Shown piece by piece: positions 481 to 31,302 of a stretch of 64,000 bases of DNA. Every line of letters starts with the position of its first letter. Within the stretch, counting starts at the first letter, position 1. Source of the stretch: Catenuloplanes atrovinosus (GTDB lineage: Bacteria > Actinomycetota > Actinomycetes > Mycobacteriales > Micromonosporaceae); NCBI RefSeq assembly GCF_031458235.1, contig NZ_JAVDYB010000001.1, forward strand, positions 2,625,001-2,689,000, in the 5' to 3' direction. The translations under genes were made by a program, and so were the position numbers. A model generated the notes under the pieces. That model was not told where the DNA came from, ran no database searches, and saw only the letters and a program-made list of their open reading frames with translations.

Positions 481-1722
481 TCAGTGCGTCGCGGGATTCG
501 CGGCGTTCCTGGGTACCTCGTCCGCTCGCCGGCGTGCGTGCAGCCGCGTTATGGCCTCCCGTACGGCGGCCACCTCGACCCGCTGGTGCACGCGAACCTT
601 GCCGATGCGCTCGGGCACCGGAAGGTTCAGAACGCCCCCTCGCTGCCGGCTGACGGCGTCCATCGCGTCGATGACCAGGTCTGGCTGGATGAGCTCATGG
701 CATACCGGCGAGCCGACGCTCCGGATGACGGCGTGGATCCGATCGCGTTCGCTCGGCGGCAGCAGGCTCAGCACGGTCGAGTACTCGGCCATCAGGGCGA
801 TGTCGATGCCCACCGCGATCCCGTGTGGCAGCAGGCCCTGCATCTCCAGCGGCGTCGCCAGCAGGTGGCCGAGGTCGACCTGCCGGTTGAGTTGATGCTC
901 CCGCAGGTTGGGCTGGAGATGCCGCAGCATCGAGGTGATGGACAGCCGTGTCACGGTGAGCGATGACGCGCTCTGGAACCCCGTCTCGAGCATCTCCTGG
1001 GCGGAGCGTTCGAGGTTCTCCCAGAGCGCCCCTCCGTCGATGACGGCCATCTTCATGATCTCCATGAGCCCGGCGCGGAGCGTGTCTGCCGAGCACCCTT
1101 GGATCAGTGCGAGGTCGAGGCCCACGTACAGCGGCGCGAAGTAGACGCCGACGCTGTTCTTCTTCCGGCCGCGGTTGAGTGCCCCCTTGACCCCGATGCT
1201 GGCGTCGACGTACGCGGTCGGCGTGGTCGGGATGATCGCCAGCGGCATGCCCTTCCAGACCCAGGCCGCGACGCACCTACCCAGATCGGCGACGGCGCCG
1301 CCGCCGACCACGACGACGAGGTCGCGGCGCTTCGCGTTCGCCTGTACGGCGTCGGCGAGGCGATGAAGCTCGTCCGTGCTCTTGCAGCCCTCACCGCCGT
1401 CCACGACGTACAGCCAATTGTGCACGCCCGCGTCGGTGAGTTCCTGGGCCAGCGCGCGTCCGTACTTCTCGGCGCCGGAGTCGACGATGAGGTGCTGACG
1501 CGGGGACAGTGCCGCGATATCCCCACGGCGCAGCAGGCCGGGCCGCTCGTGGATGGTGTACTGCATGCCTTCGCCGCGGTGGCGCACGCACCACTCGTAC
1601 TCGGCACCGCGGCGGAGGTGGACGCCGTCCGGCCCGCGAACGGGAGATCCGAACTGGCTCACGTGCGGGCTCGATGATCGGCGGGGCCAGGTGAGTCCCA
1701 TGATTCTCGCGCTCAGCGTCAT
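481..1722 (-). CDS. Sugar phosphate cyclase, 2-epi-5-epi-valiolone synthase-like
   Basis: A 413-residue protein of the dehydroquinate synthase superfamily. The NAD-binding GGGAVADL lies near 140-147, followed by PTT and a DASIGVKGALN segment. The zinc ligands are retained as E221 (GLMEIMK), H286 (DLGHLL) and H300 (LLPHG). The segment LQPNL..(x)..VDLGH...PLEM..LLPHGIAVGIDIAL and the RGG.LNLPVP..IG tail look like EEVS/valiolone-type cyclases and not AroB. The second His of the AroB HxxxH pair is Thr290. EEVS enzymes cyclise sedoheptulose 7-phosphate to a C7 cyclitol. The ATG overlaps the stop of the condensation gene by 4 bases (ATGA), which sets the start. A DHQ-like or other cyclase activity remains possible. 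Confidence 0.8.
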   Translation of the reverse strand: MTLSARIMGLTWPRRSSSPHVSQFGSPVRGPDGVHLRRGAEYEWCVRHRGEGMQYTIHERPGLLRRGDIAALSPRQHLIVDSGAEKYGRALAQELTDAGVHNWLYVVDGGEGCKSTDELHRLADAVQANAKRRDLVVVVGGGAVADLGRCVAAWVWKGMPLAIIPTTPTAYVDASIGVKGALNRGRKKNSVGVYFAPLYVGLDLALIQGCSADTLRAGLMEIMKMAVIDGGALWENLERSAQEMLETGFQSASSLTVTRLSITSMLRHLQPNLREHQLNRQVDLGHLLATPLEMQGLLPHGIAVGIDIALMAEYSTVLSLLPPSERDRIHAVIRSVGSPVCHELIQPDLVIDAMDAVSRQRGGVLNLPVPERIGKVRVHQRVEVAAVREAITRLHARRRADEVPRNAANPATH

Positions 1723-3011
1723 CGAGCGGTGGCCCAGGTCTCGAGCAGTTCGCGCATGCGCTCGCCGAGCGCGGTCGCCGCCCCGGCCTCGAACCAGCGG
1801 TCCTTGACCGAGATGCGGACCTGGAGACCCGCGTCGGACTCCGCGCCGTGCACCACGACGGTCCGGTAGCCCCAACCGTCCGACATCGGCAGCTCCGTCA
1901 TGGTCAGGCCGGGCACCGGCTCCGCGGGAAAACGCTGCTCCAGCGTGGCACCGGGGTTGAACGCCGCCGTGGGATGCGGGCTCGGCCTGCCGAACTGCTC
2001 CGGAGCCATGCGGTTGATCAATACGCCGAGCGACACCTGGGAGAAGTCCAGCGCGGTGGCGAAGGCCTCACCGAAACCGGCTATGAACGCGGGCCGGCGG
2101 ACGTCGTCGGCGTGGGTCGCCACCACGACGTTGTCCGCCAGCCAGCCCTGGGTCCGGTGCAGTGATCGGCTCGGGCGATTGGCCACCGCCAGGGTGGTGC
2201 CGACGTCCTCCGCACCGGTGAGCTCATGCAGGGCACCGGCGAGCGCCGCGTGGGCCAGGACCGAGGGGGTCAGGCCACGCAGCATCCCGGTTCCCTGCAG
2301 CCGAGCGAAGGTGTCGGCGTCCACGGTGAAGCGATGGCGGTGAACCCGGGCGTAGTTGGCGCCGCTGAAGCGTTGCCCCGGGATCGGTGCGGGCGGCTGC
2401 GGGCCGATCGGCTTCAGCATCGCGATCCGCTGCTCCACCGTCTCCACTCCGGCGGGTGTCTCCAGCCACGCGTTCTCCTGCTCCACCAGATCCGGGAAGG
2501 TGACCCGGATCGGCGGCAGGGTCACGTGCGGATCGCGGTAGAGACTCCACAGCTCGACGATGAGGATGTGAGCGCTCCACGCGTCGCAGGCGATGTGGTC
2601 GGCGGCCATGCCCAGCAGGGTCGTCGAGTCGTCGACCGGGATCGCGTGCAACCTCGCCAGCGGCCCGCGCGTGAGGTCGAACGGTGCGCGCAGCACCGTG
2701 GCCAGTTCATCCGTCGCATGCTGTGGCGTCCTGGAGGAAGCGGGGAGCCGTGACAGGGTGAGCGCGGTGCGTACCGGCTCCTCGATGTGCCAGTGGTCGT
2801 TGGCGAGGTCGAAGGAACTGCCGAGCACCGGGTGGCGACGTTGGAGGAGGTCCCATGCGTCCGCCAGGCGGGCCAGGTCGAGTTCGCCGTCCACCCGTAC
2901 CGCCCACATGACCTGGTCCGGGTTCACCAGGCGGTCCTCGGCCTGTTCGTTGCGGATCATGCCGAGGCGGTGCAGCATCTTCAGGGAGGGGCGGCGCGAT
3001 GACCGGGGCAT
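1719..3011 (-). CDS. Free-standing NRPS condensation-domain protein
   Basis: A 430-residue single condensation (C) domain without adenylation or carrier domains. It opens with MLHRLGMIRNEQ and a PDQVMWAVRVDG strand. The catalytic motif near residue 140 reads DHIACDA, so the second, catalytic His of HHxxxDG is present while the first His is Asp and the Gly is Ala. The NRPS role is amide or ester formation between a carrier-bound acyl group and an acceptor. Because it is coupled to a carrier protein gene upstream (one-base TGATG overlap) and the cyclase gene downstream, it may transfer an aminoacyl group onto the cyclitol. That is inference; an atypical epimerising or non-catalytic C domain is an alternative. 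Confidence 0.85.
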   Translation of the reverse strand: MPRSSRRPSLKMLHRLGMIRNEQAEDRLVNPDQVMWAVRVDGELDLARLADAWDLLQRRHPVLGSSFDLANDHWHIEEPVRTALTLSRLPASSRTPQHATDELATVLRAPFDLTRGPLARLHAIPVDDSTTLLGMAADHIACDAWSAHILIVELWSLYRDPHVTLPPIRVTFPDLVEQENAWLETPAGVETVEQRIAMLKPIGPQPPAPIPGQRFSGANYARVHRHRFTVDADTFARLQGTGMLRGLTPSVLAHAALAGALHELTGAEDVGTTLAVANRPSRSLHRTQGWLADNVVVATHADDVRRPAFIAGFGEAFATALDFSQVSLGVLINRMAPEQFGRPSPHPTAAFNPGATLEQRFPAEPVPGLTMTELPMSDGWGYRTVVVHGAESDAGLQVRISVKDRWFEAGAATALGERMRELLETWATAR

Positions 3012-3304
3012 CAGGACCTCTCGGTGGTCACGGCGCTGTCGGCGCCGGATGGCAGGGCGAACAGGGCCGGGTCGATGACCGCGGCGGCCAGGTCGGCCAG
3101 GACGGGTCGTCGCAGCACACCGGAGGCCGGCATCTCCAGGCCCGCTCTGCGGGACTCCGTCGCCGCCTCGAGCGCCAGCAGCGAGTCGCCCCCGAGCTCG
3201 AAGAAGTCGTCAGTGTCGGCGATGTCGTCCGGCACCAACGCGAGGGTTTCCGCCCATACCGCGCGCAATGCGGCTATCCGGGCGCTGAGCTCAGGGTGTG
3301 GCAT
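3011..3304 (-). CDS. Free-standing peptidyl/acyl carrier protein
   Basis: A 97-residue carrier protein with the phosphopantetheine site in DDFFELGGDSLLAL; the Ser is about residue 42. GGDS is the form typical of NRPS peptidyl carriers. It is the first gene of a three-gene leftward unit with the C-domain and cyclase genes, all overlapping. The start ATG is preceded by a purine-rich GGAAGG/AGGA stretch. An adenylation enzyme acting in trans must load it; candidates in this window are the free A domain at 26318 and the AMP ligase at 28694. Confidence 0.9.
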   Translation of the reverse strand: MPHPELSARIAALRAVWAETLALVPDDIADTDDFFELGGDSLLALEAATESRRAGLEMPASGVLRRPVLADLAAAVIDPALFALPSGADSAVTTERS

Positions 3305-4276: not shown

Positions 4277-4564
4277 ATGGTGCCCCCGAACCCTGGTAAT
4301 CCCGGTCCGGATCGCAACGAGGCCGAATTCGAGCGCAGGCTCGCGGACGCGTTCCGAACCGGCCTCGATCTGCCGTCCGGCATCGATGTCACGACGCTGG
4401 CGTTCGGTCAGCACCGCAACTGGGACTCCCTCGGCCACATGTCGCTGATCGTGGCGCTGGAACAGGAGTTCGGCATCAGGCTCGTGGACGACGGGGTCCT
4501 CGACATCGACACCTATGCGACGGCCGCGAGCGCCGTGCGATCCGAGCTGCACCGGAGCGCCTGA
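4277..4564 (+). CDS. Acyl carrier protein
   Basis: A 95-residue carrier protein. The attachment Ser lies in NWDSLGHMSLIVALEQEFGI (about residue 54), a motif closer to free-standing acyl carriers than to the GGDS of NRPS carriers. The start at 4277 is chosen because AGGAGAGAGGA sits just before it. It is the first gene of the rightward operon and is followed by two MaoC-type proteins, so it may carry their acyl substrate. No ketosynthase occurs in the window, so the acyl group must be made or loaded differently. The ligase at 28694 is one possible loader. Confidence 0.88.
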   Translation: MVPPNPGNPGPDRNEAEFERRLADAFRTGLDLPSGIDVTTLAFGQHRNWDSLGHMSLIVALEQEFGIRLVDDGVLDIDTYATAASAVRSELHRSA

Positions 4565-4612
4565 CGGCGCACCGCGATTGTGCAGCGTCCGTCGAGAGGC
4601 CGAGGAGTGTCG

Positions 4613-5806
4613 ATGCAGGATGACGGTTCACAGCTCACCGCGACAATGCCGCCGCGAGGCGACATCGCGATGGTGGCCACACGCAGCAGCCGCTTGATCG
4701 GGTGCCACGCCCCCGACGCCGAGCCCGGAGTCGACGCCGCTGACTGGCTGAGTGTCACGCGCTTCGCCGAGGTCTCGAGCGACGACAATCCGCTCTACAC
4801 CGACGTGCGATACGGAGCCGCCTCGCCGCATCGCACCATGCTGGCGCCGCCGGCCTTCGTCCTGGCGCTTCGATCACCCTGTTCGACCGGGGCACTCGAC
4901 CTGATCCCGAACGAACTCGTCAGCCGCGTCGATACCTTGGAGGTGACCTGGTACGACACCATCCGCCTCGGCGACCGTCTGGCCGGCCGGGTCCGGGTGG
5001 ACGGGGTCGGTCACCGGGCGGAGCCGGGAACGGCGGACCAGGTTCGGATCACCTCGACGGCCGAGTACGAGCGGGACGGGGTGCGCTTCGCACTGGGACG
5101 CGCCGAGGTGTCGATCAGTGCACTCCCGACGCACGACGTCCGGCCGATCCACCGCTACGGTCAGCCGGAGATCGACCGGATGAGCCGGGAGCTCGACGAT
5201 GAGGCGGATCCGCGAGGACCACGACCCCGTCACTGGGGAGACGTGCGGATCGGCGACGCGCTGCCGTCCGTGCTGCGCGGCCCGTTGACCATCTCCGACC
5301 TCGAAGCCTGGGTGATCGCCGCCGGCCGGCCGGTGCGTGCGGGCAATCTTCAGCAACGGTGGCTGGCCGAGCGCGACGGACGCCGCCGGGCGCACCCGCT
5401 CACCGGCTGGCCGGCGTGGGACCGCGCTGAGGCCGCGCTGGATTCCGCCGTCACCGAACCCGCCGGCCCGGCGGCTCCGGCCGAGCTCCTGTTCACCCTC
5501 GCCTGCCAGCTCGTCACCAGTTGGATGGGCGACGACGGATTCCTGCGAAGCCTCAGCCTGCGCGTCGGTGAACCGTTTCGATACGGGGACGCCGTACGGC
5601 TGAGCGGCTCGGTCAGGGATCTGTACCGGCTCACCGGGGCGGACGGGCGGGGATATCACGCCGCCGCGGTCCGGATGACCGGCGTGAATCAGCTCACCCA
5701 GACCGTGTTCGAGGCGGACGCCGTGACGCTGCTCCCGCAGCCCGGCCGGCCGGTTCACCTCCCCGTTCCGGCCGTGCTCCACTGCGACGTCACTCAGGAG
5801 CGCTGA
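4613..5806 (+). CDS. MaoC-like double-hotdog dehydratase/hydratase subunit 1
   Basis: A 397-residue protein with two hotdog folds, about residues 30-180 and 220-395. The N-terminal fold has SSDDNPLYTD, the MaoC segment in which Tyr replaces the usual catalytic His. The C-terminal fold has WMGDDGFLR, where the expected D-x4-H ends in Arg. By motif it therefore lacks a standard catalytic pair. MaoC proteins add or remove water at 3-hydroxyacyl thioesters. The start at 4613 has GAGGAG upstream; the stop overlaps the next ATG by one base (TGATG). Its sister at 5806 keeps a D-x4-H pair, so the two may form a heterodimer with one active subunit. Confidence 0.75.
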   Translation: MQDDGSQLTATMPPRGDIAMVATRSSRLIGCHAPDAEPGVDAADWLSVTRFAEVSSDDNPLYTDVRYGAASPHRTMLAPPAFVLALRSPCSTGALDLIPNELVSRVDTLEVTWYDTIRLGDRLAGRVRVDGVGHRAEPGTADQVRITSTAEYERDGVRFALGRAEVSISALPTHDVRPIHRYGQPEIDRMSRELDDEADPRGPRPRHWGDVRIGDALPSVLRGPLTISDLEAWVIAAGRPVRAGNLQQRWLAERDGRRRAHPLTGWPAWDRAEAALDSAVTEPAGPAAPAELLFTLACQLVTSWMGDDGFLRSLSLRVGEPFRYGDAVRLSGSVRDLYRLTGADGRGYHAAAVRMTGVNQLTQTVFEADAVTLLPQPGRPVHLPVPAVLHCDVTQER

Positions 5807-8497: not shown

Positions 8498-9331
8498 ATG
8501 AGCCATCGTGCGGAGGGAAAGGTCGCTCTCGTCACCGGGGCGGCACGGGGGCTGGGGCGCGACCACGCGGTCCGGCTCGCCGAGGAGGGTGCCGACCTCA
8601 TCGTGGTGGACATCTGCCGGCGGGTCGAGTCCGTGCCGTACGGGATGCCGGCGGCGACCGATCTCAGTGAGACGGCCGGCCTGGTCCGGGCGCTGGGCCG
8701 GCGGGTGGTCGTCGCCGAGGCGGACGTCCGTGACCCGGCCGCGATGGGCGAGGCGGCCCGCCGCGGTGTGGAGGAACTGGGCCGGCTGGATGTCGTGCTG
8801 GCGAACGCGGGCATCATCTCCTACGGCCCGGCCATGGAACTGACGGAAGCCCAATGGTCGGATGTGCTCGACACCAACCTGACCGGCGCCTGGCACACCG
8901 TCAGGGCCTGCGTCCCGCATCTGATCGCCGGTGACCGTGGCGGTTCGATCGTGCTGACCAGCTCGACCGCCGGGCTCAAGGGCACCGCGAACATCGCCCA
9001 CTACGCCGCCGCCAAACACGGCCTGGTGGGGCTCATGCGAACGCTGGCACTGGAACTCGCCCCGCACCGTATCCGGGTCAACGCGGTGCATCCCACCACC
9101 GCCAACACACCGATGGTGCACAACCCGGCGAACATGCGGATGTTCCTGCCGGACCGCGAGGCTCCGACGGCCGAGGAGTACGTAGCGGCCATGACCGCGC
9201 AGAACGTTCTGCCGGTGCCATGGGTCGAGCCGCGGGACGTGTCCAACGCCGTGCTCTTCCTCGCCTCGGACGAGGCCCGTTACATCACCGGTGTCTCGCT
9301 TCCGGTCGACGCCGGCTGGCTGCTCCGGTGA
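8498..9331 (+). CDS. Mycofactocin-coupled SDR family oxidoreductase
   Basis: A 277-residue short-chain dehydrogenase. The TGAARGLG dinucleotide motif is near 13-20, NAG near 103, the catalytic Ser at 155-156, and Y169/K173 in HYAAAKHG. After the second strand it carries the insertion VDICRRVESVPYG... LSETAGLVRALGRR, the hallmark of SDRs whose bound NAD(H) is not exchangeable and which use mycofactocin as electron carrier. It probably oxidises an alcohol of the cyclitol intermediate to the ketone that the aminotransferases need. The mycofactocin genes themselves are not in the window. GAGGGAGA lies before the ATG. Confidence 0.85.
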   Translation: MSHRAEGKVALVTGAARGLGRDHAVRLAEEGADLIVVDICRRVESVPYGMPAATDLSETAGLVRALGRRVVVAEADVRDPAAMGEAARRGVEELGRLDVVLANAGIISYGPAMELTEAQWSDVLDTNLTGAWHTVRACVPHLIAGDRGGSIVLTSSTAGLKGTANIAHYAAAKHGLVGLMRTLALELAPHRIRVNAVHPTTANTPMVHNPANMRMFLPDREAPTAEEYVAAMTAQNVLPVPWVEPRDVSNAVLFLASDEARYITGVSLPVDAGWLLR

Positions 9332-22023: not shown

Positions 22024-22031
22024 TCTCCGGG

Positions 22032-22763: not shown

Positions 22764-22997
22764 GCTCTCCGATCGCAGGTTGGAGATCCCTTGCCGTCCA
22801 TCAGTTTGTATCACCCGTCCGATGCTTCCGTCCACTGTGCCTCCGGGGTTTCCAATTCGTCGAGTGGAGGCTAGAGTGTCGATGGAGTCATCGAAGTCTC
22901 TCGTTGCGTGTCGGCCCCTTCTTATTCGGTCGCCAACCCTCCGCGCCATGGGCGCTATCTGACTTATCCGAACTGTGACCGGAGGAGCTTCCGCGCC

Positions 22998-25900
22998 ATG
23001 GGTAACGTTCCCGGAAAGCCGGATGTATCCCGGGTGTACGCCCGGTTCGTTCAGGCCGCCGAGGCGGGCCCGGACAGGCCCGCGGTGATCGAGGCGTCGG
23101 GTGCCACGACTACTTATGGTGAGCTCGCCGCGGCGGCACGGCAGGTCGGAGCGAGCCTGGCCGCGGCGGGTTTCCGGCCGGGTGACCGCGCGGCCGTCGT
23201 CTGGACCGTGGGGCTGCCGACGGTGGCGGCGATACTCGGCGTCCTCGACGCGGGCGGCACCTACGTCCCGATCGACCCCGACGCTCCGGACGGCCGATGG
23301 GACTTCCTGCTCGCCGATGCCGCTCCGGTCGCGGTGCTCACCTCCGCTCCGGCGCACTCGGCCAGGATTCGCGCGATCCGCCCGCACGCGAAATCCGTGT
23401 CCACGGTCCGCGATCTGGAGCTGTTCACCACCGACGCCGCTCCGGCCGACGGTGACGTCGACGGCTGCTACCTGATCTACACCTCGGGGTCGACCGGAGT
23501 GCCGAAGGGGGTGGTCATCACCCACCACAACCTGCAGGCGACGCTCGACGCCGGATGCGCGGTCATCAACGCCGGTGTGAACGACCGCTGGTCGGTCTTC
23601 CACTCCTTCTCCTTCGACTTCTCGGTCTGGGAACTGTTCGGCCCGCTGGTCACGGGCGGCGCCGCGGTGCTCGTCCCGCCGTCGGCTCGGCGTGACCCCG
23701 CCCTGTTCAAGGAGCTACTGGATCGGACCGCGGTCACCGTCCTCAGCCAGACGCCCGGTGCCTTCCGTGGTCTGGTCGGTCACTACGCCGACGCCACGGC
23801 CGGCTCGCTGCGGGTCGTCGTCTTCGGCGGTGAGCGTCTCGACCCGGCCGTTCTCGCGCCCTGGTTCGCTCGGCACGGCGACGAGACCCCGGAACTGATC
23901 AACATGTACGGCATCACCGAATGCACGATCCACGTGACGTACCGCCGGATCCGGGTGGGGGATGCGGCGCGCCCGGTGAGTCCGATCGGGCGTCCGTTCC
24001 CGCACCTGACCGTCCACCTGCTCGACCCGGACGGCACGGCGATCACCGCACCCGGCGTGGTCGGTGAACTGTACGTGTCCGGGGCCGGCGTCGCGTCCGG
24101 CTACCTCAACCGAGCGCCGGAGACGGCCGCGGCCTTCGTCCCGGACACGTTCCCGGGCGGCGCTCGGCGGATGTACCGCACCGGGGACCTGGCCAGGTGG
24201 GACGAGCGCGGCGAGTTGCTCTACGAGGGGCGGCGCGACCGCCAGCTCAAGATCCGCGGTCATCGCATCGAGCCGGGTGAGATCCAGGCCGCGCTGGCCA
24301 CGCTCGGATACAGCGACACACTGGCGACGGTGGGCACGGACGAGGCCGGCCACGCCCGGCTCGTCGTGTACGTGGTCACCGAGGAGAGCGGCGTCGAACG
24401 TGCCATCCTCGGCCAGCTGCGGGACACGCTGCCGGGCTACCTGGTGCCGAGCCGCATCGTGTTGATCCGTGGCCTGCCGCTGACCCCGAACGGCAAGATC
24501 GACGAGGCTGCGTTGCCCGAGGCGTTCCCCGCGGCCGCTGCACCGGCCGAGGCGAGCCCGGCCGGCGACCCGCGGGAGGCCCTCCTGCGCGACGTGTGGA
24601 CGGACGTCCTCGGCGTGGACGGCATCGAGGGCGACGACGACTTCTTCGACATCGGCGGTGACAGCCTGCTGGCGATCCGCGTCGTGGCGGCGGTGACGAC
24701 CGGTGGATACCCGATGACCGTGGAGGATCTCTACCGGGGCCGGACGTTGACGGCGGTTGCCGCCGGCCTCGTCGCGGCCGATCCGGTCGCCGGCGCGGAG
24801 GCGGGCCCCGCCCCGGTGACCCGGCTACCGGCGACCCGGACCCAACAGGGCATCCTCTTCGAGGCCAGAGTGCATCGCGCTCGCGCGCTCTACCATGACT
24901 TCGCGAGCCTGCTGGTGGAGGCGCGGTGGGACGCGGCCCGGCTGCGCCGGGCCCTGCGCACGACCACAGCGCGGCAGCCCACGTTGCGTACGGCGTTCGA
25001 GTCCACCGCGACGGGCATGTACCAGACGGTGACGCCAGAGGTGGACGTCGAGTGCACCGTTGTCGACCTGCGGACGGACGATCCCCGAGGCGCCGACCCG
25101 CTGCGCCGGCTCTGGATGGACGCGGAGCGGCGGCGGGGTTTCGTCATGAGCCGGCCGCCGTTGTTCCGGGCACAGGCCGTCGTGCTCAGTGATGACGTCT
25201 TCCGGCTGACGCTCAGCTTTCACCATGCCGTCCTCGACGGATGGAGCGTCGGCCTGGTGGCCGGCGAGCTGGTGCGGGCGTATCTGGACGACACGGACCC
25301 CGCCTCGCACGCCCCCGCCTCACCGACCCTGATGAGCGTCTACGCCGAGGCCGAGGAAGCGGCCTGCCGATCGGACGTGACGATCGCATACTGGCGGGAT
25401 TACCTGACGGGCCTGACACGCGCCGACTTCGCCCGCGTGCCCGACGTCGGCGCACCGGGCGAGGTCGTCATCATGCCGTTCGCCACCGGTGACCTCGCCG
25501 CGATTCGGGCAATCGCCCGGAGCAGCCGCACGTCGGTCAAGAACGTACTGCTGACCGTTCATCTGGTGGCCCTCGCCGCGGTCTGCTCCGTAGGGCCCGC
25601 GGTGAGTTCGGCCGTGGTCACCAGCGCCCGGCCCGCGATACCGGGCGCGGACACGGTCGCGGGCCTCTTCCTCACCACCCTGCCGGTTACGCTGCGCGTG
25701 GCGTCCGCGACGTGGCGGGACGCGTTGCGGGCGGTCGGCGACCGGGAGGTCGCGCACCTGCCGCATCGCCGGTTCCCCGCGGCCGAGATGGCGCGGCTGG
25801 CGCCGGACGCCGTACCCAACACGTTGTTCAACTTCACCGACTTCCACCACCTGAGCCCGCGGGACGGGCGGCGGCTGCCCGTCCTTGACTACGTGGAGAC

Positions 25901-26084
25901 CGATCTGAACAACTTCGACCTGTCCGCCGACTACAGCGCCGTCGGGGCGACACTGCAGCTCACGGCGCGGGCGGATCTGTCCCGCGTGCCGGTGCGCACC
26001 TCCTCGGCATACGTGACGGCGGTCCGTTCCGCGCTGGACCGGCTGACCGCCGGCGGCGGCGATCTCGACAGCACCGTTCTGTGA
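22998..26084 (+). CDS. NRPS module A-PCP-C, threonine-like specificity code
   Basis: A 1028-residue NRPS. The A domain (about 15-510) has YTSGSTG (~160), NMYGITE (~302), KIRGHRIEPG (~418) and NGKID (~497). The binding-pocket residues that I read off are D-F-W-S-V-G-M-I-H-K, closest to the Thr code DFWNIGMVHK. The PCP has FFDIGGDSLLAIR with Ser ~555. The C domain (~635-1028) has an intact HHAVLDG at ~742. The order A-PCP-C without a leading C suggests a start module whose C domain joins the Thr unit to a partner carrier, such as the next gene. GGAGGAG lies 10 bases before the ATG. Confidence 0.88.
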   Translation: MGNVPGKPDVSRVYARFVQAAEAGPDRPAVIEASGATTTYGELAAAARQVGASLAAAGFRPGDRAAVVWTVGLPTVAAILGVLDAGGTYVPIDPDAPDGRWDFLLADAAPVAVLTSAPAHSARIRAIRPHAKSVSTVRDLELFTTDAAPADGDVDGCYLIYTSGSTGVPKGVVITHHNLQATLDAGCAVINAGVNDRWSVFHSFSFDFSVWELFGPLVTGGAAVLVPPSARRDPALFKELLDRTAVTVLSQTPGAFRGLVGHYADATAGSLRVVVFGGERLDPAVLAPWFARHGDETPELINMYGITECTIHVTYRRIRVGDAARPVSPIGRPFPHLTVHLLDPDGTAITAPGVVGELYVSGAGVASGYLNRAPETAAAFVPDTFPGGARRMYRTGDLARWDERGELLYEGRRDRQLKIRGHRIEPGEIQAALATLGYSDTLATVGTDEAGHARLVVYVVTEESGVERAILGQLRDTLPGYLVPSRIVLIRGLPLTPNGKIDEAALPEAFPAAAAPAEASPAGDPREALLRDVWTDVLGVDGIEGDDDFFDIGGDSLLAIRVVAAVTTGGYPMTVEDLYRGRTLTAVAAGLVAADPVAGAEAGPAPVTRLPATRTQQGILFEARVHRARALYHDFASLLVEARWDAARLRRALRTTTARQPTLRTAFESTATGMYQTVTPEVDVECTVVDLRTDDPRGADPLRRLWMDAERRRGFVMSRPPLFRAQAVVLSDDVFRLTLSFHHAVLDGWSVGLVAGELVRAYLDDTDPASHAPASPTLMSVYAEAEEAACRSDVTIAYWRDYLTGLTRADFARVPDVGAPGEVVIMPFATGDLAAIRAIARSSRTSVKNVLLTVHLVALAAVCSVGPAVSSAVVTSARPAIPGADTVAGLFLTTLPVTLRVASATWRDALRAVGDREVAHLPHRRFPAAEMARLAPDAVPNTLFNFTDFHHLSPRDGRRLPVLDYVETDLNNFDLSADYSAVGATLQLTARADLSRVPVRTSSAYVTAVRSALDRLTAGGGDLDSTVL

Positions 26085-26094
26085 GGAAGTGATC

Positions 26095-26325
26095 GTGAAT
26101 CACAAGGAAATCGTGCACTCGACCGTCGCCCGTACCCTCGGCGTTCCGGCGGTGGACGGCAGCGCGAGCTTCTTCGATTTGGGCGGCGACTCGCTCAGCG
26201 CGCTGCGGGTCATCACCCTGCTCGAGCAGCAGCTCGGCCACACGCTCGACATCGTCGACCTGCTGACCGCTCCCACGCTGGACGACTACGCCGCCGACCT
26301 TCCCGCGGCGGCCGGCCATGCCTGA
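26095..26325 (+). CDS. Free-standing peptidyl carrier protein
   Basis: A 76-residue carrier with SFFDLGGDSLSALRVITLLEQ; the phosphopantetheine Ser is about residue 31. GAGGA seven bases upstream supports the GTG at 26095; a GTG at 26089 would sit inside the ribosome site. It follows the NRPS gene by ten bases, and its last codons overlap the free A-domain gene. It is therefore the probable in-trans partner loaded by that A domain and used by the upstream C domain. Confidence 0.9.
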   Translation: MNHKEIVHSTVARTLGVPAVDGSASFFDLGGDSLSALRVITLLEQQLGHTLDIVDLLTAPTLDDYAADLPAAAGHA

Positions 26326-27727
26326 CACCGTCTGGGAGGCGTTCCGCGCGCACGGCCGGAGCCGGCCCGACCGGTGCGCGGTCCGCACGGACGGCTCCAT
26401 GATCTCCTACCGGGAGCTGGCACGGCGCGTCGAGTCGCTGATCGCCGGCCTGCCGGCCGTACCCGCCGGCGGAGCGGTCGGCGTGCTCACCGACGATCCC
26501 TTCGTCGCGCTGCAGGCGTTCCTCGCCGCCAGCGCGATCGGATGCGTCTTCGTCCCGCTGGGCACCGATCATCCGGAAGCGCGCCGGCAGCAGATCCTCG
26601 ACGACGTGGACGCGCACGTCGTCCTCACCGGTGACCATGACGGCAAGGTCGTGGTACGCGACATCCGGTCCGCCGCGCGGCCCGCCGGTCGCTTCGACAA
26701 CGTCGCCTACGTGTACTTCACGTCGGGCTCGACCGGGCGCCCGAAGGGAGTCATGATCTCCGTCGCCGCGCTGAGCGAGCGCCTCGCCGGCCTGGCGCGG
26801 TGGCCCGGGCTGAACGAGGACGACGCCATCCTCGCGCTGACCCATCCGACCTTCGACATCTTCATCGCGGAGACCCTGCTCCCGCTGACCGTGGGGGCCG
26901 GCATCGTGACCTCGAGGTGGCGATCGCGCTCGGACATCCGAGGGATCGCCGACGTGGTCGCACGTGCCCGGCCCACCGTCGTCCAGGCCACCCCGAGCTG
27001 GTGGCGGCTCGCGCTCGGAGCCGGCCTGCAACCGCGCGGGGAGCGGATCTGGTGCGGCGGGGAGGCGATGTCCCCGGCGCTCGCCCGGCGGCTGCTCGCC
27101 GGTTCGCCGCGGGTCTTCAACGTGTACGGCCCGACCGAGGCGACGATCTGGTGCTCCGCGGCGGAGATCACCGATCCGGACACCATCAGACTCGGCCGGC
27201 CCGTTCCCGGCGTACGGCTGGAGGTGGACGGCGAGGACGGCGAGGGTGAACTCGTCATCCACGGCTCGGGCCTGGCCGACGGGTACGTCGACCGGCCCGA
27301 GGAGACGGCACGGGCCTTCCGCACCGACGATACCGGCCGGGTCGTCGCATACCGCTCGGGCGACCGCGTGCTTCGCCTCGGCGACGGTTCACTGGAGTTC
27401 CGCGGCCGGCTCGACCGGCAGGTCAAGGTGCGCGGTAACCGCCTGGAACTCGGGGAGGTGGAGAGCTTCCTGGAAGGGCATCCGCAGGTGATCGAATGCG
27501 CCGTGGAGGTGGCGGCCGACGAGTCCGGGGAGTCGCTCTCGCTGGTCGCCTTCATCGTCGCGCGAGGGGAGGTCAGCGCCGTGGAACTGCGTCGGTGGCT
27601 ACGGGAGCGGCTGCCGGACGGACACGTGCCCGCGCACATCCGGTTCACCGGTGCCATGCCGCGCACCACCGCGGGAAAGCTCGACCGGATCGCGCTGGGC
27701 GCTCAGGCGAACCAGTTCATCTCCTGA
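26318..27727 (+). CDS. Free-standing NRPS adenylation domain, glycine-like code
   Basis: A 469-residue amino-acid-activating enzyme: YFTSGSTGRPKGV (~131), NVYGPTEATIW (~268), YRSGDRV, GRLDRQVKVRGNRLELGEVE and AGKLDR near the end with the catalytic Lys. Pocket residues read as D-I-A-Q-W-G-V-I-W-K, nearest to the Gly code DILQLGLIWK, so a small amino acid is likely. This is a by-eye assignment. It overlaps the carrier gene by eight bases, which suggests it loads that carrier. Its 3' end overlaps the convergent DUF2332 gene by 25 bases. Confidence 0.87.
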   Translation: MPDTVWEAFRAHGRSRPDRCAVRTDGSMISYRELARRVESLIAGLPAVPAGGAVGVLTDDPFVALQAFLAASAIGCVFVPLGTDHPEARRQQILDDVDAHVVLTGDHDGKVVVRDIRSAARPAGRFDNVAYVYFTSGSTGRPKGVMISVAALSERLAGLARWPGLNEDDAILALTHPTFDIFIAETLLPLTVGAGIVTSRWRSRSDIRGIADVVARARPTVVQATPSWWRLALGAGLQPRGERIWCGGEAMSPALARRLLAGSPRVFNVYGPTEATIWCSAAEITDPDTIRLGRPVPGVRLEVDGEDGEGELVIHGSGLADGYVDRPEETARAFRTDDTGRVVAYRSGDRVLRLGDGSLEFRGRLDRQVKVRGNRLELGEVESFLEGHPQVIECAVEVAADESGESLSLVAFIVARGEVSAVELRRWLRERLPDGHVPAHIRFTGAMPRTTAGKLDRIALGAQANQFIS

Positions 27728-28638
27728 CCATGGCCGAGCGTCCAGGCGAGCGGGCGGCCGTCCAGCGACAGGACGTTGTAGAGCGTGTCGCCCGGCGGCG
27801 GCGGGAGCTCGGGGAAGGGGACCACGTCCGGGGCCTCCACCGAGATCCAGTGACCGGGCAACTCGCCCACCATGGCCAGGAACCGGTTCCGCCGCTCGAC
27901 CGGCACCTGGTAGAGCACCGAGGTGTGGAAGACGACCAGTGTCGCGTCCGACGGCGCCCGGGCGGCCAGGTCGCGCAGATCGTCCACCAGGTCGCCGCGG
28001 ACCAGCAACGGCGGATCCGCGGCGACGATCGCGGCCGCGGATTTCAGCCGCTGCCGGCGATTGCGTTGTTCCGGCCAGATCAACGCGTCCAGCCAGGCGA
28101 CGTCGGACTCGTCGGTCACGTCGAGCGGGTTCAGGTCGAGGCCGGCACGCCAGACGACCTCCGGCAGCCGATCGGGCGGGGCGGTGCCGGTGAGCGCGCA
28201 ATCGAGCACCGGGTGACCGTCGCCGACCGGGTGGTCGCCGTAGCGGTACGCGTACCTGTCCGGGTACAGCCCGAGCCCGGCGGCCGCGCCGACCTCCAGC
28301 AGGGCCAGCGGCTGCGGCAGCGAGGCCAGCACCGGCAGCAGCAGCGCGCAGCGGCCGGCCTCGTTGGTCTGCGTGGCCCGGCTGCGCAACTCGGCCTCCA
28401 CCGCCGGCCAGTGCGCGACCGTGAACGCGCGGAACGCCTCCGGATCGTCGACCGGCCCGCCGAGCAGCCGCACCACCGCCAGCAGCAGGTTCGGCTGCCG
28501 TTTCGGCGAGGGCACCCGCTCGAGCAGGGCGAGCAGCTCGGTGTCTCGCGAGATGGCGAGCGACAGTCGCTCGTACGTCGGCGATCCGGGGTGAGCTTCC
28601 CGGGTGGCGAAATCGGAATACAGGGCGGCAACCGGCAC
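27703..28638 (-). CDS. DUF2332 family protein
   Basis: A 311-residue protein with the LLGGPVDDPEAFRAFTVAHWPAVEAELR region and the LLEVGAAAGLGLYPDRYAYRYG motif typical of DUF2332. The latter looks like the glycine-rich SAM-binding loop of a methyltransferase, as does LVVFHTSVLYQVP further on. The biochemical role of the family is unknown to me. It is encoded opposite to its neighbours, and overlaps the A-domain gene end by 25 bases. It could be a tailoring enzyme or an unrelated gene caught between cluster genes. Confidence 0.75.
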   Translation of the reverse strand: MPVAALYSDFATREAHPGSPTYERLSLAISRDTELLALLERVPSPKRQPNLLLAVVRLLGGPVDDPEAFRAFTVAHWPAVEAELRSRATQTNEAGRCALLLPVLASLPQPLALLEVGAAAGLGLYPDRYAYRYGDHPVGDGHPVLDCALTGTAPPDRLPEVVWRAGLDLNPLDVTDESDVAWLDALIWPEQRNRRQRLKSAAAIVAADPPLLVRGDLVDDLRDLAARAPSDATLVVFHTSVLYQVPVERRNRFLAMVGELPGHWISVEAPDVVPFPELPPPPGDTLYNVLSLDGRPLAWTLGHGQEMNWFA

Positions 28639-28693: not shown

Positions 28694-29926
28694 GTGACGC
28701 TGTGGCATCCCGGTGCGCGTGTCATCGACGCGGAGACCGGGGAGTCCGTGACGCCCGGGCTGATCGACGCCGCGGCGGCTGAGCTCACCGCGAACGGCGA
28801 CCGCGTTCCGGTGTTCCTGCCGATGCCGTCGACCGTGCCGGCGGTGGCCCGCTATCTGGCCGCCCTGCGGCTCGGCCGGCCGGTGGTGCTGCTCGATCCG
28901 GATGCCCGCCACCCCGGGCTGGCCGAGCGCTACACCGTTGATCGGGTGCACCCGGAGCTGGCGCTGCTGCTCACCACCAGCGGCTCCACCGGGGACCCGA
29001 AGCTGGTCCGGCTGTCCCGCTCCGCGGTGCTGGCCAACGCTGAGCAGGTGGCGGGCAGCCTCGGGATCACCGGGGACGACGTCGCCGTCACGACGTTGCC
29101 GCTGTTCTACTCGTACGGGCTGTCGGTGCTGCACTCGCACCTGCTGCGTGGCGCGACGGTGGTGCTGGAACGGACCGGCATCATGCAGCGGACCTTCTGG
29201 AACGCGGTCCGCGCGCACCGGGTGACCTCGTTGGCGTTCGTACCGTACCAGTACGAGATGCTGCGCAGGCTGGGCTTCGATCCGGCCGAGCTGCCGTCGG
29301 TGCGGACCATCACGCAGGCCGGCGGCCGGCTCCGCACCGACCTGATCAGCGACTTCGCGCAGCGGATGGCGGCGGTCGGCGGCCGGATGTTCGTGATGTA
29401 CGGCCAGACCGAGGCGGCGCCGCGGATGGCCACGCTTCCCCCTGACCGGCTCGTGGACAAGCTCGGCTCGGTCGGACTGGCGGTGCCGGGTGGCGCGTTC
29501 ACCGTCGAGAAGGGTGAGGTGGTCTACCGCGGACCCAACGTGATGATGGGGTACGCGCACAGCGGTGCCGACCTGGCCAAGGGGGACGAACTGGGCGGCG
29601 TGCTGCACACCGGCGATCTGGGCCGGCTCGACGACGAGGGCTTCCTGTTCCTCACCGGACGGATCACGCGGATGGGCAAGGTGTTCGGCGTCCGGATCAA
29701 CCTGGATGACGTCGAACGGCACTTCCCGGTCGCCGCGGTGGCCGGCGACGACAGGCTGCACGTCTTCGCCGAGGCGACCTCCGCCGACGAGGCCCGCAGG
29801 CTGCGCGCCACCATCGCCGAATGGCTGGGCACCCACTTCACCGGGGTGGACGTGCGCCCGATCGACGCGCTGCCGCTGCTGCCGAACGGCAAGACCGACT
29901 ACCGGGCGCTGGAGGCGTCGCTGTGA
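28694..29926 (+). CDS. AMP-dependent acyl/amino acid ligase
   Basis: A 410-residue adenylate-forming enzyme, shorter than usual because the N-terminal lobe is reduced. It has LLLTTSGSTGDPKLVRLS, TLPLFYSYGLSVLHSHLL, FVMYGQTEAAPRM, LHTGDLGRLDDEGFLFLTGRI and a C-terminal LPNGKTDY with the catalytic Lys. The GTG at 28694 follows AAGGGG. It should activate a carboxylic acid and load it onto CoA or one of the free carriers. The acid is unknown; the ANL motifs resemble fatty-acyl or aryl ligases more than A domains. It diverges from the DUF2332 gene. Confidence 0.83.
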   Translation: MTLWHPGARVIDAETGESVTPGLIDAAAAELTANGDRVPVFLPMPSTVPAVARYLAALRLGRPVVLLDPDARHPGLAERYTVDRVHPELALLLTTSGSTGDPKLVRLSRSAVLANAEQVAGSLGITGDDVAVTTLPLFYSYGLSVLHSHLLRGATVVLERTGIMQRTFWNAVRAHRVTSLAFVPYQYEMLRRLGFDPAELPSVRTITQAGGRLRTDLISDFAQRMAAVGGRMFVMYGQTEAAPRMATLPPDRLVDKLGSVGLAVPGGAFTVEKGEVVYRGPNVMMGYAHSGADLAKGDELGGVLHTGDLGRLDDEGFLFLTGRITRMGKVFGVRINLDDVERHFPVAAVAGDDRLHVFAEATSADEARRLRATIAEWLGTHFTGVDVRPIDALPLLPNGKTDYRALEASL

Positions 29927-30933
29927 GCGGCGCCGACACCGCGGAGCACGGTCATGGCGTGGTGCAGGTCGTCCTCGGTGTCCGGCACGTCCAAGATGAT
30001 CGTCTCAGCGCCCATGTCCCGATAGGCGGCGACAAGACGGGTGACCTCCGCGTAACTGCCCACCAGATAAGGGCAGAACGTTTTGTATGTTCGGAAGGGG
30101 TGCAGCCAATATGTGTCCGCCGAGGGTTCCGTCGAACGCGCGTCATCGGAAAGGGCCGCATGCCACTTCGAATCCGACAGTCGCTGTGCCAGCCTGTGCA
30201 TCCGGCGGCCGGCAGGGTCGGCGGGAAAGCGTGAGACGGCGGTTTTCCAGGCCTCCGCGGAGGTTTCCCTGGCGATGATGCCGATCCGTATGCCCACGGC
30301 ATGCGCCGACTCTCTCCACGCGTTTCCGACATCGTCCGGGTGCGCGGGATAGGTCAGGCGCGTGGCATCCAGGCTGTCCGTCACCTCCCGGCTCGCCGGC
30401 GAGTTCCCGGAAACGAATAGGCGGGGTGCCAGAGCGGGTGGTAGAGGGGGATGGAAGGTCGCCTTGTCCACGCGGTAGTGGTCGCCGTGAAAAATGGTCG
30501 GCGATTGCGTCGAGAGAAGGTCACGGATGATGAGGGCGAACTCCCGCAGCCGTCGGTATCTGCCGTCGTGATCCTCCCGCAGGGGATCGCCCAGTTCGGC
30601 GAGATGCTTGGCGAAACCTCCGGTGATGAGGTTCAGGTCGACCTGGCGCTCATGCAACCAGGCCAACGAGGCGACGGCCTTGGCGACCGCGTACGGGTGT
30701 GTGTAGACCGGCTGCACGGCGACCATCGGCACCAGGGTGTCGGTGCGCTCGATCACCGTCTGGGCGGTGAGCCACACGTCGGTGAGGGAGTTGTCGGCGT
30801 ACACCAGGAACCCCCGGCAGCCGGCCGCCTCCGTCCATCGCGACACGTCCCGCAGGCGCGTCAGGTACTGCTTCGGAGAGTCCACGGTGGAGGCCGGGCA
30901 GGTCGTGTAAACGGTGAACGGCGACCCGGTCAT
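29899..30933 (-). CDS. LLM-class flavin-dependent monooxygenase
   Basis: A 344-residue luciferase-like TIM-barrel enzyme close to the alkanesulfonate monooxygenase branch. It has RWTEAAGCRGFLVYADNS, PMVAVQPVYTHPYAVAKAVASLAWLHERQVDLNLITGG, RYRRLREFALIIRDLL and PRLFVSGNSPAS. These use reduced FMN to hydroxylate or cleave substrates. It is preceded by a free carrier gene in the same direction, so the substrate may be carrier-bound. Its end overlaps the convergent ligase gene by 28 bases. It looks like the last enzyme of the cluster's right arm. Confidence 0.87.
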   Translation of the reverse strand: MTGSPFTVYTTCPASTVDSPKQYLTRLRDVSRWTEAAGCRGFLVYADNSLTDVWLTAQTVIERTDTLVPMVAVQPVYTHPYAVAKAVASLAWLHERQVDLNLITGGFAKHLAELGDPLREDHDGRYRRLREFALIIRDLLSTQSPTIFHGDHYRVDKATFHPPLPPALAPRLFVSGNSPASREVTDSLDATRLTYPAHPDDVGNAWRESAHAVGIRIGIIARETSAEAWKTAVSRFPADPAGRRMHRLAQRLSDSKWHAALSDDARSTEPSADTYWLHPFRTYKTFCPYLVGSYAEVTRLVAAYRDMGAETIILDVPDTEDDLHHAMTVLRGVGAAHSDASSAR

Positions 30934-31044
30934 GTGCCGGCCACCGCATCCCCTGCCGCTTCTGCCGCCAGTTCCGGTTTGGCGTATCGGGGCACACCGC
31001 CTCCTGTTGTCTGCCGTACCGAGAAAGTGCTGACCGACCCGGTC

Positions 31045-31302
31045 TCAGGTCTGCCGGAGCCGGGACAGATAGGCCTCGGAACAGCCCGCGAGAACCTCAC
31101 TCAATCGCCCGTCGAAGAAAAGGCTTTCCACCGGAAATTCGATGCCGAGTCGGGCTTCCACTCGTTCGATGAGTTCGACTGCCAGGACCGAGTCGCCGCC
31201 GAGGGCGAAGAAGTCGTCTTCCGGCCGGACGGTGTCTACGCCGAGGAGCGCGCGCCATTCTCGATGCACCGCTTCCGTGACGTCGGTATCCTGTTCAGGC
31301 AT
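31045..31302 (-). CDS. Free-standing peptidyl carrier protein
   Basis: An 85-residue carrier protein, DDFFALGGDSVLAVELIERVE, with the attachment Ser near residue 37. GAGGAA precedes the ATG at 31302. It is read in the same direction as the LLM monooxygenase gene 110 bases downstream and has its own good promoter. It is the fourth free carrier of the cluster, and probably presents a substrate to the monooxygenase. Confidence 0.9.
   Translation of the reverse strand: MPEQDTDVTEAVHREWRALLGVDTVRPEDDFFALGGDSVLAVELIERVEARLGIEFPVESLFFDGRLSEVLAGCSEAYLSRLRQT

What the first reader, a model, noticed from the sequence alone, without database searches (positions are those of the whole stretch)
481..31302. 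Cyclase-VOC-aminotransferase cluster joined to a dissociated NRPS: probable new aminocyclitol-peptide
Seen: an EEVS-like sugar phosphate cyclase, VOC protein, three DegT proteins, ATP-grasp ligase, A-PCP-C NRPS, free A, C and four carriers, and an exporter in one 31-kb block without a ketosynthase. Known: EEVS plus a VOC epimerase plus a DegT aminotransferase make C7N aminocyclitols (cetoniacytone-type logic). Inferred: amino acids (Thr-like, Gly-like) are joined to that core. I recognise no known product with this set.
Basis: partly seen in the sequence, partly recalled or inferred. Interest (0 to 1): 0.85.

Follow-up and report, generated by a model that had tools for sequence, protein, structure and literature searches.

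The report
New aminocyclitol-peptide gene cluster island
A relative of Micromonospora carries a 31-kilobase inserted block of genes that looks like the recipe for an unknown small molecule, a sugar-like ring with amino groups joined to an acyl group and amino acids, and parts of the same recipe recur in other bacteria beside different ring-making enzymes.

Summary
The block (about 406-31,570) is a lineage-specific island in a Micromonosporaceae genome; two congeners lack it. Micromonospora chokoriensis has a sister cluster (type I). The cyclase is not AroB or DOIS (AU tests) and is rejected from ValA's subclade; with its M. chokoriensis homologue (68%) it forms a long branch near the sedoheptulose-7-phosphate cyclases, with EEVS's His360 changed to Gln. 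Whether it lies beside or within the wider EEVS group is unresolved. A scan of 84,980 species for one MaoC protein gave 10 loci. In 8 of 11 (window included, about four cluster types) a cyclitol-forming gene of one of three kinds stands near: EEVS-like, DOIS or myo-inositol-phosphate synthase. DegT2 lacks the catalytic lysine in all three clusters that have it. Best reading: an N-acylated C7 aminocyclitol joined to Thr-like and Gly-like residues. Product, acyl group and bonds are inferred. The literature listings seen named no such cluster; MIBiG and antiSMASH could not be run.

The parts
481..1722 (-). Sugar phosphate cyclase (own long branch with M. chokoriensis near the S7P cyclases; ValA His360 position is Gln, KN-Arg position is Ser)
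   Evidence: Pfam DHQ_synthase/DHQS_C; PDB ValA 5e-40; fingerprint; trees and AU tests; start
1719..3011 (-). Free condensation domain (motif DHxxxDAWS in place of HHxxxDG, shared with M. chokoriensis)
   Evidence: Pfam 8e-25; motif
3011..3304 (-). Free peptidyl carrier protein
   Evidence: PF00550 2.6e-13
4277..4564 (+). Acyl carrier protein (WDSLGHM)
   Evidence: PF00550, 0.014, below cut-off; conserved in related clusters
4580..5806 (+). MaoC1, hotdog (FAS1_DH_region) protein
   Evidence: PF13452 4.7e-8; residues
5806..7131 (+). MaoC2, probably double-hotdog protein
   Evidence: PF13452 5.8e-5; alignments; AF2 model pLDDT 65, pTM 0.73 and fold search to MaoC hydratases/dehydratases (TM-score 0.3-0.43)
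7153..8469 (+). DegT1 aminotransferase (PLP Lys present)
   Evidence: PF01041 5.5e-88; best PDB match 8gyh 2.5e-80
8498..9331 (+). SDR oxidoreductase (TIGR03971 model, 401 bits against cut-off 300)
9366..9824 (+). VOC/glyoxalase-fold protein, putative cyclitol epimerase
   Evidence: PF00903 2e-21; start
9821..10552 (+). Thioesterase 1 (type II)
   Evidence: PF00975 1.4e-24; start
10549..11676 (+). DegT2, DegT fold without the PLP lysine (Ala)
   Evidence: PF01041 3.8e-66; start
11673..12800 (+). DegT3 aminotransferase (PLP Lys present)
   Evidence: PF01041 1.9e-87
13014..13706 (+). SAM methyltransferase
   Evidence: PF08241
13791..14570 (-). SDR oxidoreductase 2
   Evidence: PF13561
14571..15548 (-). 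E1-beta-like TPP subunit
15545..16519 (-). E1-alpha-like TPP subunit (PDH-type, below the curated PDH cut-offs)
16550..17983 (-). ATP-grasp amino-acid ligase
   Evidence: PF13535; weak BacD/DdaF similarity
18090..19493 (+). SagB-like FMN oxidoreductase
   Evidence: TIGR03605 4.5e-29; start
19497..20468 (+). ABC transporter ATPase (DrrA type)
20465..21238 (+). ABC-2 permease 1
   Evidence: start
21235..22023 (+). ABC-2 permease 2
   Evidence: start
22032..22742 (-). Thioesterase 2
   Evidence: PF00975 3e-11; start
22908..26084 (+). NRPS A-PCP-C; A code DFWSVGMIH(K), Thr-like
   Evidence: code read by motif
26089..26325 (+). Free PCP
   Evidence: PF00550 7.7e-16
26318..27727 (+). Free A domain; code DIAQWGVIW(K), Gly-like
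27703..28638 (-). DUF2332 protein
   Evidence: PF10094 1.2e-75
28694..29926 (+). Stand-alone AMP ligase (acyl-ACP ligase type)
   Evidence: start
29899..30933 (-). Luciferase-like monooxygenase, last gene of the block
   Evidence: PF00296 3.5e-28

Best explanation
The 31-kb block is a lineage-specific (probably acquired) biosynthetic island. It probably makes an N-acylated, multiply aminated C7 cyclitol linked to amino acids, exported by its own ABC transporter. Steps: (1) the divergent cyclase closes sedoheptulose 7-phosphate to a C7 keto-cyclitol, perhaps not 2-epi-5-epi-valiolone itself; (2) the VOC protein epimerises it; (3) the SDR oxidises and DegT1 and DegT3 aminate ring ketones, with lysine-less DegT2 as a non-catalytic or active-site-completing partner of DegT3; (4) the AMP ligase loads a short carboxylic acid on the free ACP and the MaoC1/MaoC2 pair adjusts the thioester; (5) the free C domain transfers an acyl or aminoacyl group to a ring amine; (6) the A-PCP-C protein (Thr-like), the free A/PCP (Gly-like) and the ATP-grasp ligase add amino acids; (7) E1-alpha/beta with SDR2, SagB, the methyltransferase and the monooxygenase tailor, and the thioesterases edit or release. 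Shown: gene content, island borders, the sister cluster, the recurrence of the ACP/ligase/MaoC/DegT1 set near cyclitol enzymes, residue changes. Inferred: every substrate, bond and order of steps.
For: Sister cluster in M. chokoriensis: cyclase 68%, VOC 73%, AMP ligase 67%, MaoC2 71%, DegT1 65%, SDR 68%, C 48%, DegT3 53%, DegT2 40%, MaoC1 47%, ACP 58%, ATP-grasp 33%, A 28%. The cyclase pair is rejected from AroB and DOIS and keeps the metal-ligand and other superfamily positions compared. MaoC pair near a cyclitol-forming gene in 8 of 11 loci, of three enzyme kinds; all 7 loci with DegT1 after MaoC2 have one. Other AMP-ligase relatives (50-65% to the window's) sit in three operons with an SDR, a divergent DegT, sugar-modifying genes and, in one, a hexapeptide acyltransferase, the look of N-acyl amino-sugar loci. 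Island: the flanks lie 256 and 248 bases apart in two congeners.
Against: No metabolite, activity or expression data. The window's AMP ligase is closer to the amino-sugar-type ligases (50-65%) and to M. chokoriensis (67%) than to most cassette ligases (43-50%), and in both type I clusters it stands apart from the ACP, so its pairing with that ACP is inferred. The Microtetraspora locus has the ACP-ligase-MaoC set with no DegT1 and no cyclitol gene seen. The 8 loci are not independent (for example cluster proteins of L037 and L038 are mostly 72-93% alike). Neither MaoC protein has the hydratase-2 histidine (0 of 20 aligned) and the C-terminal His of MaoC2 is Arg in 3 of 10, so dehydratase chemistry is not shown. 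The ATP-grasp and A domains are poorly conserved with M. chokoriensis (33% and 28%); the E1 pair, SagB, MT, DUF2332, thioesterases, transporter and monooxygenase gave no match in its 80 kb, and SDR2 only matched other SDRs. No lipoyl/E2 component was hit. The cyclase's place is unsettled: AU does not reject it even on the AroB/DOIS side of the deepest branch (p 0.38).
Confidence: 0.5

Rival explanations
1. Canonical C7N aminocyclitol cluster: the cyclase makes 2-epi-5-epi-valiolone as EEVS does, the VOC protein makes the 5-epi isomer (ValD/CetB logic, recalled), DegT aminates it, and the NRPS genes only add a side chain.
For: Sisterhood with all EEVS rows is not rejected (p 0.32); with two long rows left out the pair falls among EEVS-like rows at low support; ValA's Asp281 and the metal ligands are kept.
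Against: His360 is Gln in both members of the pair, while Asp281/His360 are kept in 20 of 22 other family cyclases; the KN-Arg change to Ser is less telling, as Arg is kept in 18 of 22. Nesting with ValA's subclade is rejected (p 0.006). No kinase, nucleotidyltransferase or pseudoglycosyltransferase was hit.
Confidence: 0.3
2. Two fused pathways: a cyclitol route and an unrelated small peptide route that share an island but not a product.
For: A and ATP-grasp genes are weakly conserved between the two type I clusters (28-33%) and the window has many genes with no own counterpart in M. chokoriensis.
Against: PCP, A, ATP-grasp, C, DegT2 and DegT3 are contiguous in M. chokoriensis, and an ATP-grasp with DegT1-3 recurs in Umezawaea beside a DOIS-type cyclase, so the ligase genes travel with the cyclitol genes.
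Confidence: 0.15
3. Mycosporine-like amino acid cluster variant (cyclase, methyltransferase, ATP-grasp ligase, NRPS-like enzyme).
For: The four enzyme types co-occur here; grouping with DDGS is not rejected by itself (p 0.13).
Against: The DDGS residues Ala and Thr at the two fingerprint sites are absent (Asp and Gln here); the methyltransferase has no match in the sister cluster; the VOC protein, three DegT proteins and the MaoC pair are foreign to that pathway (recalled).
Confidence: 0.04

Closest known systems
Validamycin/acarbose/cetoniacytone C7N-aminocyclitol clusters (EEVS + VOC-type epimerase + aminotransferase)
   Same: Sugar phosphate cyclase near the EEVS group, beside a VOC protein and DegT aminotransferases
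   Different: Cyclase outside ValA's subclade with His360 changed; no kinase, nucleotidyltransferase or pseudoglycosyltransferase hit; dissociated NRPS, MaoC pair, TPP E1 pair and SagB present
Micromonospora chokoriensis NRRL B-24750 cluster (L033/G160), no product found in the listings searched
   Same: Cyclase, VOC, ACP, MaoC1/2, AMP ligase, DegT1-3, SDR, C, ATP-grasp, A, PCP
   Different: Adds an aspartate decarboxylase (PanD) beside the AMP ligase; no own counterpart of the E1 pair, SagB, methyltransferase, thioesterases, SDR2, DUF2332, LLM, transporter or whole A-PCP-C protein was found in 80 kb
Umezawaea tangerina and Lysobacter sp. yr284 DOIS-type clusters
   Same: MaoC pair near a sugar phosphate cyclase; Umezawaea also has ACP, AMP ligase, DegT1-3 and ATP-grasp
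   Different: Cyclase is of the 2-deoxy-scyllo-inosose synthase type (Umezawaea protein against 2d2x, 9.8e-73) with cupin and SDR; Lysobacter has a different carrier and A protein, a glutamine-synthetase-like and a FemAB-like gene and no DegT1
Streptomyces fumanus, S. orinoci, S. sp. NEAU-Y11, Mangrovihabitans myo-inositol-phosphate-synthase clusters
   Same: ACP, AMP ligase, MaoC1, MaoC2, DegT1 in the same order
   Different: Cyclitol from a myo-inositol-1-phosphate-synthase homologue; FemAB-like protein and MFS exporter; no counterpart of the window's NRPS genes within 10 kb by tblastn (large unscanned ORFs lie further out in S. orinoci)
QncN/QncL and SclQ glycolyl-ACP systems (quinocarcin, scleric acid)
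   Same: Two-subunit TPP (E1-alpha/beta type) enzyme in an NRPS cluster
   Different: No lipoyl/acyltransferase component was hit here

Membership tests
[quoted passage not shown]
   All compared positions kept in the window and M. chokoriensis proteins
[quoted passage not shown] that two sites tell EEVS from DDGS is from a passage of PMC4426668, their identity is recalled) | tested here: not met
   Asp kept, His360 is Gln in both; 20 of 22 other family cyclases have Asp/His
[quoted passage not shown]
   Outside the 21-row EEVS group (83/93) in the first tree; between L007/L019 and the rest at 61/30 and 74/83 in the second; nesting with ValA's subclade rejected p 0.006; sister position not rejected p 0.32
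[quoted passage not shown]
   No assay
3-dehydroquinate synthase (AroB) | Groups with AroB | tested here: not met
   AU p 0.0007; TIGR01357 162 bits against cut-off 305
[quoted passage not shown]
   AU p 0.007
C7N-aminocyclitol cluster | S7P cyclase + VOC epimerase + aminotransferase in one cluster | tested here: inconclusive
   The three gene types are present; the cyclase's substrate is not shown
C7N-aminocyclitol cluster | Cyclitol kinase, nucleotidyltransferase and pseudoglycosyltransferase (validamycin/acarbose type) | tested here: not met
   No such hit among the genes of 481-30933 (Pfam on all 28; NCBIfam on part); not required for the cetoniacytone type (recalled)
Mycosporine-like amino acid cluster | DDGS-type cyclase (Ala/Thr fingerprint) | tested here: not met
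   Asp/Gln instead
(R)-specific enoyl hydratase 2 / MaoC dehydratase | Double-hotdog fold | tested here: inconclusive
   MaoC2 model pLDDT 65, pTM 0.73; best matches MSMEG_6754 dehydratase (E 9e-13, TM 0.42, rmsd 14 A) and mesaconyl- and itaconyl-CoA hydratases; leans towards met
(R)-specific enoyl hydratase 2 / MaoC dehydratase | Asp-x-Asn-Pro-Leu-His catalytic motif (recalled) | tested here: not met
   Tyr or Phe at the His in 20 of 20 MaoC1/MaoC2 proteins
DegT/DnrJ/EryC1/StrS aminotransferase (DegT2) | Schiff-base lysine | tested here: not met
   Ala, Gly, Asn in window, M. chokoriensis, Umezawaea
MIBiG entry with the same set | Same gene set in a characterised cluster | not testable with these tools
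   MIBiG not held; the listings (25 of 55 shown; 20 of 264 shown) named no such cluster

The most novel reading that the evidence does not exclude
The ACP/AMP-ligase/MaoC1/MaoC2/DegT1 set is an undescribed, portable module that installs an ACP-borne acyl group on aminocyclitols made by three unrelated or distantly related entry enzymes (an EEVS-like S7P cyclase, DOIS, myo-inositol-phosphate synthase). The type I clusters then use a new S7P cyclase activity and a paired live/lysine-less DegT to make a new class of acylated C7 aminocyclitol peptides.
Probability: 0.27. Interest if true: 0.82.

Novelty: new variant of a known kind. Interest (0 to 1): 0.62.

Why it matters
If true, aminocyclitols of three biosynthetic origins share one acyl-carrier-based tailoring module. 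That would explain a set of clusters for which I found no product and give a search handle for new aminocyclitols. The cyclase pair offers a direct test of which pocket residues set product outcome among S7P cyclases, and the DegT2/DegT3 pair a test of whether a lysine-less aminotransferase subunit is needed for activity.

Tried and rejected
Canonical MaoC dehydratase with a GD....H dyad in MaoC2: dropped, because the C-terminal His is Arg in L037, L038 and L040 and the N-terminal His is missing in all 20 proteins. Plain AroB: rejected by the AU test. Literal mycofactocin dependence of the SDR: the model score is over cut-off, but neither the window genome nor M. chokoriensis has the mycofactocin radical-SAM protein over cut-off (0 of 2; other mycofactocin genes not searched), so the label is not taken as function. 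A QncN/QncL-type glycolyl-ACP route for the E1 pair (precedents seen as passages in PMC6335953 and PMC5384830): kept only as a possibility, as no lipoyl/E2 gene was hit in the block. E1-alpha relatives were found in 5 of 6 genomes searched (window genome included), 33-43% alike apart from the window's own gene; in the other genomes none lies on the contig that carries the cluster, and the two other own-genome copies lie 5 Mb and 1.9 Mb away. PanD as a hint at beta-alanine: a second PanD copy sits beside the M. chokoriensis AMP ligase, but the window genome has no PanD match (3 of 10 genomes had none), so it cannot be general. Viral contigs gave no relative of the cyclase. At E <= 1e-60 the cyclase hit only G000 among 394 class genomes and only G000 and M. 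chokoriensis among 397 order genomes. In 23 cyclase loci with 1.5-kb flanks only M. chokoriensis had a VOC relative beside the cyclase. The first fingerprint table mis-read reverse-strand loci; it was redone. L003 was dropped from the trees, as its sequence lacks the superfamily positions.

Literature: PMC4426668, PMC5133447, PMC3288074, PMC7081202, PMC8599487, PMC6335953 and PMC5384830 were seen as found passages only; other papers were seen in search listings only. Kean 2014, Osborn 2017 and Wu 2007 are not held, so ValA's two fingerprint residues are recalled. The ValD/CetB epimerase role, 'Fic25' as my recollection for PDB 8gyh, the ESX look of the left flank and the meaning of the specificity codes are recalled labels.

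Full report
What is there. The window lies at G000:C1:2,625,001-2,689,000 of an 8.9-Mb single-contig genome. Its family also holds M. chokoriensis: G160 contig 1 and record NZ_JOAN01000001.1 both have 759,615 bases, hence Micromonosporaceae by inference. Coding-phase and family scans give the genes listed under parts.

Borders. Left of 405 stands a response-regulator gene and, further left, genes that look like a type VII secretion locus (recalled from their form, not scanned). Right of 31,570 stand a weakly WXG100-like gene and an alpha/beta hydrolase. GC is 0.68-0.73 in 2-kb windows of the block, 0.71-0.73 just right of it and mostly 0.70-0.78 further right, and 0.754 over 15.6 kb at the left end. 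In congener G003 the DNA matching window 1-374 and 33,645-40,000 (84% and 83% identity) lies 256 bases apart, so there the hydrolase region is missing too. In congener G002, window 7-383 and 31,833-33,460 (83% and 70%) match stretches 248 bases apart. Of five genomes in the genus, window genome included, the response regulator is found in three and the hydrolase in two. The block is therefore a lineage-specific island of about 31 kb. Gain here rather than loss elsewhere is inferred; the cyclase is in one of the five genomes.

The sister cluster. M. chokoriensis carries a related cluster. Counterparts of the cyclase, VOC, ACP, MaoC1, MaoC2, DegT1, SDR, AMP ligase, C, DegT2, DegT3, ATP-grasp, an A domain and a PCP are present, at 28-73% identity. 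The E1 pair, SagB, methyltransferase, both thioesterases, DUF2332, monooxygenase and transporter gave no match in its 80 kb; SDR2 matched only other SDRs, and nothing matched the A-PCP-C protein as a whole. The sister cluster adds an aspartate decarboxylase next to the AMP ligase, one of two copies in that genome, while the window genome has none.

The cyclase. Best PDB match is ValA, then the DDGS of 5TPR. The tree has 33 rows: the window, 23 cyclases found in 354 family genomes, the own AroB, two DOIS-type relatives and six references; L003 was dropped. The window and M. chokoriensis proteins form one 100/100 branch on the S7P-cyclase side of the deepest split (100/99), outside the 21-row EEVS group (83/93). 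AU tests reject grouping with AroB alone (p 0.0007), with DOIS alone (0.007) and with ValA's subclade (0.006; this last group was chosen after seeing the tree). They do not reject sisterhood with all EEVS (0.32), a place on the AroB/DOIS side of the deepest split (0.38) or joining DDGS (0.13). Without two long rows the pair stays on the S7P side (100/100) but falls between L007/L019, which carry Asp/His, and the other EEVS rows, at low support (61/30, 74/83). So the pair is a long, deep branch near or within the EEVS group; its exact place is open. ValA's Asp281 and the metal ligands are kept; His360 is Gln and the Arg of the KN-Arg motif is Ser in both. Asp281/His360 are kept in 20 of 22 other family cyclases, the Arg in 18 of 22. 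The enzyme probably works like an S7P cyclase, but it fails one EEVS fingerprint site, so it is not filed as EEVS. At E <= 1e-60 no further member appeared in 394 class and 397 order genomes beyond the two known.

The recurring set. A scan of 84,980 species with a two-sequence MaoC2 alignment (two short peptide patterns, so close relatives only) gave 10 loci. With the window that makes 11. MaoC1 and MaoC2 are adjacent in 10 of 11. An ACP and a stand-alone AMP ligase accompany them in 9 of 11, in the order ACP, AMP ligase, MaoC1, MaoC2 in 7; in the two type I clusters the ligase stands apart. DegT1 follows MaoC2 in 7 of 11; the Actinoallomurus contig ends 270 bases after MaoC2, so it cannot tell. 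A cyclitol-forming gene is present in 8 of 11: EEVS-like in the window and M. chokoriensis; DOIS-type in Umezawaea and Lysobacter (2d2x, 9.8e-73 for the Umezawaea protein; 100/100 with the DOIS of 2d2x); a myo-inositol-1-phosphate-synthase homologue in S. orinoci by Pfam and in S. fumanus, NEAU-Y11 and Mangrovihabitans by 69-92% identity to it. None was seen in the Microtetraspora, Actinoallomurus and SAR202 loci, where 5, 2 and 0 neighbouring genes were scanned. All 7 loci with DegT1 have a cyclitol gene. The loci are related to each other, so this is about four cluster types, not eight independent cases. It argues that DegT1 aminates the cyclitol and that the ACP module serves it.

What the acyl module may do. 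Other relatives of the AMP ligase sit in three operons (own genome at 8.39-8.41 Mb, Mangrovihabitans, Umezawaea; 50, 65 and 51% to the window's ligase; 60, 75 and 64% over the matched stretch). There an SDR and, in two of three, a called ACP lie beside the ligase and DegT is divergent; near them lie an epimerase/dehydratase-type (Polysacc_synt_2) gene in two, a Gfo/Idh/MocA gene and a hexapeptide acyltransferase in Umezawaea, and LuxE/LuxC-like genes in two (Pfam run on 10 proteins, the rest by similarity). That is the look of N-acylation of amino sugars. The window's ligase is closer to these than to most ligases of the recurring set (43-50%), so the type I ligase may have its own substrate, or may not serve this ACP. 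The MaoC2 model matches mycobacterial dehydratases and mesaconyl- and itaconyl-CoA hydratases, at modest model quality and TM-scores of 0.3-0.43. The usual His is Tyr or Phe in 20 of 20 MaoC1/MaoC2 proteins, so the reaction is open.

DegT2 and DegT3. The pair is conserved in the window, M. chokoriensis and Umezawaea. DegT2 has Ala, Gly or Asn at the PLP-lysine site; the three DegT3 and seven DegT1 proteins compared keep Lys. A lysine-less partner in three clusters, the other two at 40% and 47-48% identity to the window's, suggests a kept structural or active-site-completing role.

The peptide part. A1 reads DFWSVGMIH (Thr-like) and A2 DIAQWGVIW (Gly-like) by motif positions that I applied by hand. 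The free C has DHxxxDAWS in both type I clusters. The M. chokoriensis A code differs (D-P-Y-Y-L-V-V-T by the same reading), so the amino acids are expected to differ.

Literature. The listings named no cluster with this set; some returned no paper, 92 showed 25 of 55 and 93 showed 20 of 264. This does not cover most subscription journals or MIBiG.

Changes after checking. The place of the cyclase relative to EEVS is weaker than I first wrote, and the window's ligase is nearer to the amino-sugar type; I therefore lowered the best explanation from 0.55 to 0.5, raised the canonical-EEVS rival from 0.25 to 0.3 and lowered the novel case from 0.3 to 0.27.

Verdict. A real, discrete and unusual aminocyclitol-type cluster. 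It is a new variant of a known kind; its best new features are the gene set shared among cyclitol clusters of three origins, the off-fingerprint cyclase and the lysine-less DegT2.

Noticed in passing
window 8498-9331: SDR scores 401 bits against a cut-off of 300 for a mycofactocin-coupled SDR model, yet neither this genome nor M. chokoriensis has the mycofactocin radical-SAM protein over cut-off.
   Followed up: partly
window 10549-11676; L033:14600-15712; L036:4747-5862: DegT-fold protein without the PLP lysine, beside a DegT3 that keeps it, in all three clusters.
   Followed up: yes
G000:C1:8391001-8411000 (L042): Second ACP/SDR/AMP-ligase operon in the same genome, divergent from DegT and Polysacc_synt_2 genes; looks like an N-acyl amino-sugar locus.
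   Followed up: partly
L040 (Lysobacter sp. yr284) 2740-8796: DOIS-type cyclase, cupin-like and SDR-like genes, glutamine-synthetase-like protein, carrier and A protein in one run, next to the MaoC pair.
   Followed up: partly
L034, L035, L037, L038: Conserved myo-inositol-phosphate-synthase clusters with a FemAB-like protein and the ACP/ligase/MaoC/DegT1 set; no product found in the listings searched.
   Followed up: partly
G000 whole genome: No match to the aspartate decarboxylase family PF02261; 3 of 10 genomes searched had none, M. chokoriensis has two copies.
   Followed up: no
window 47416-51513: 1,365-residue protein with many WD40 repeats, outside the cluster.
   Followed up: no
window 35105-41353: Run of four glycosyltransferases and a 749-residue protein right of the island; the stretch 33645-40000 aligns with congener G003 in one piece.
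   Followed up: no
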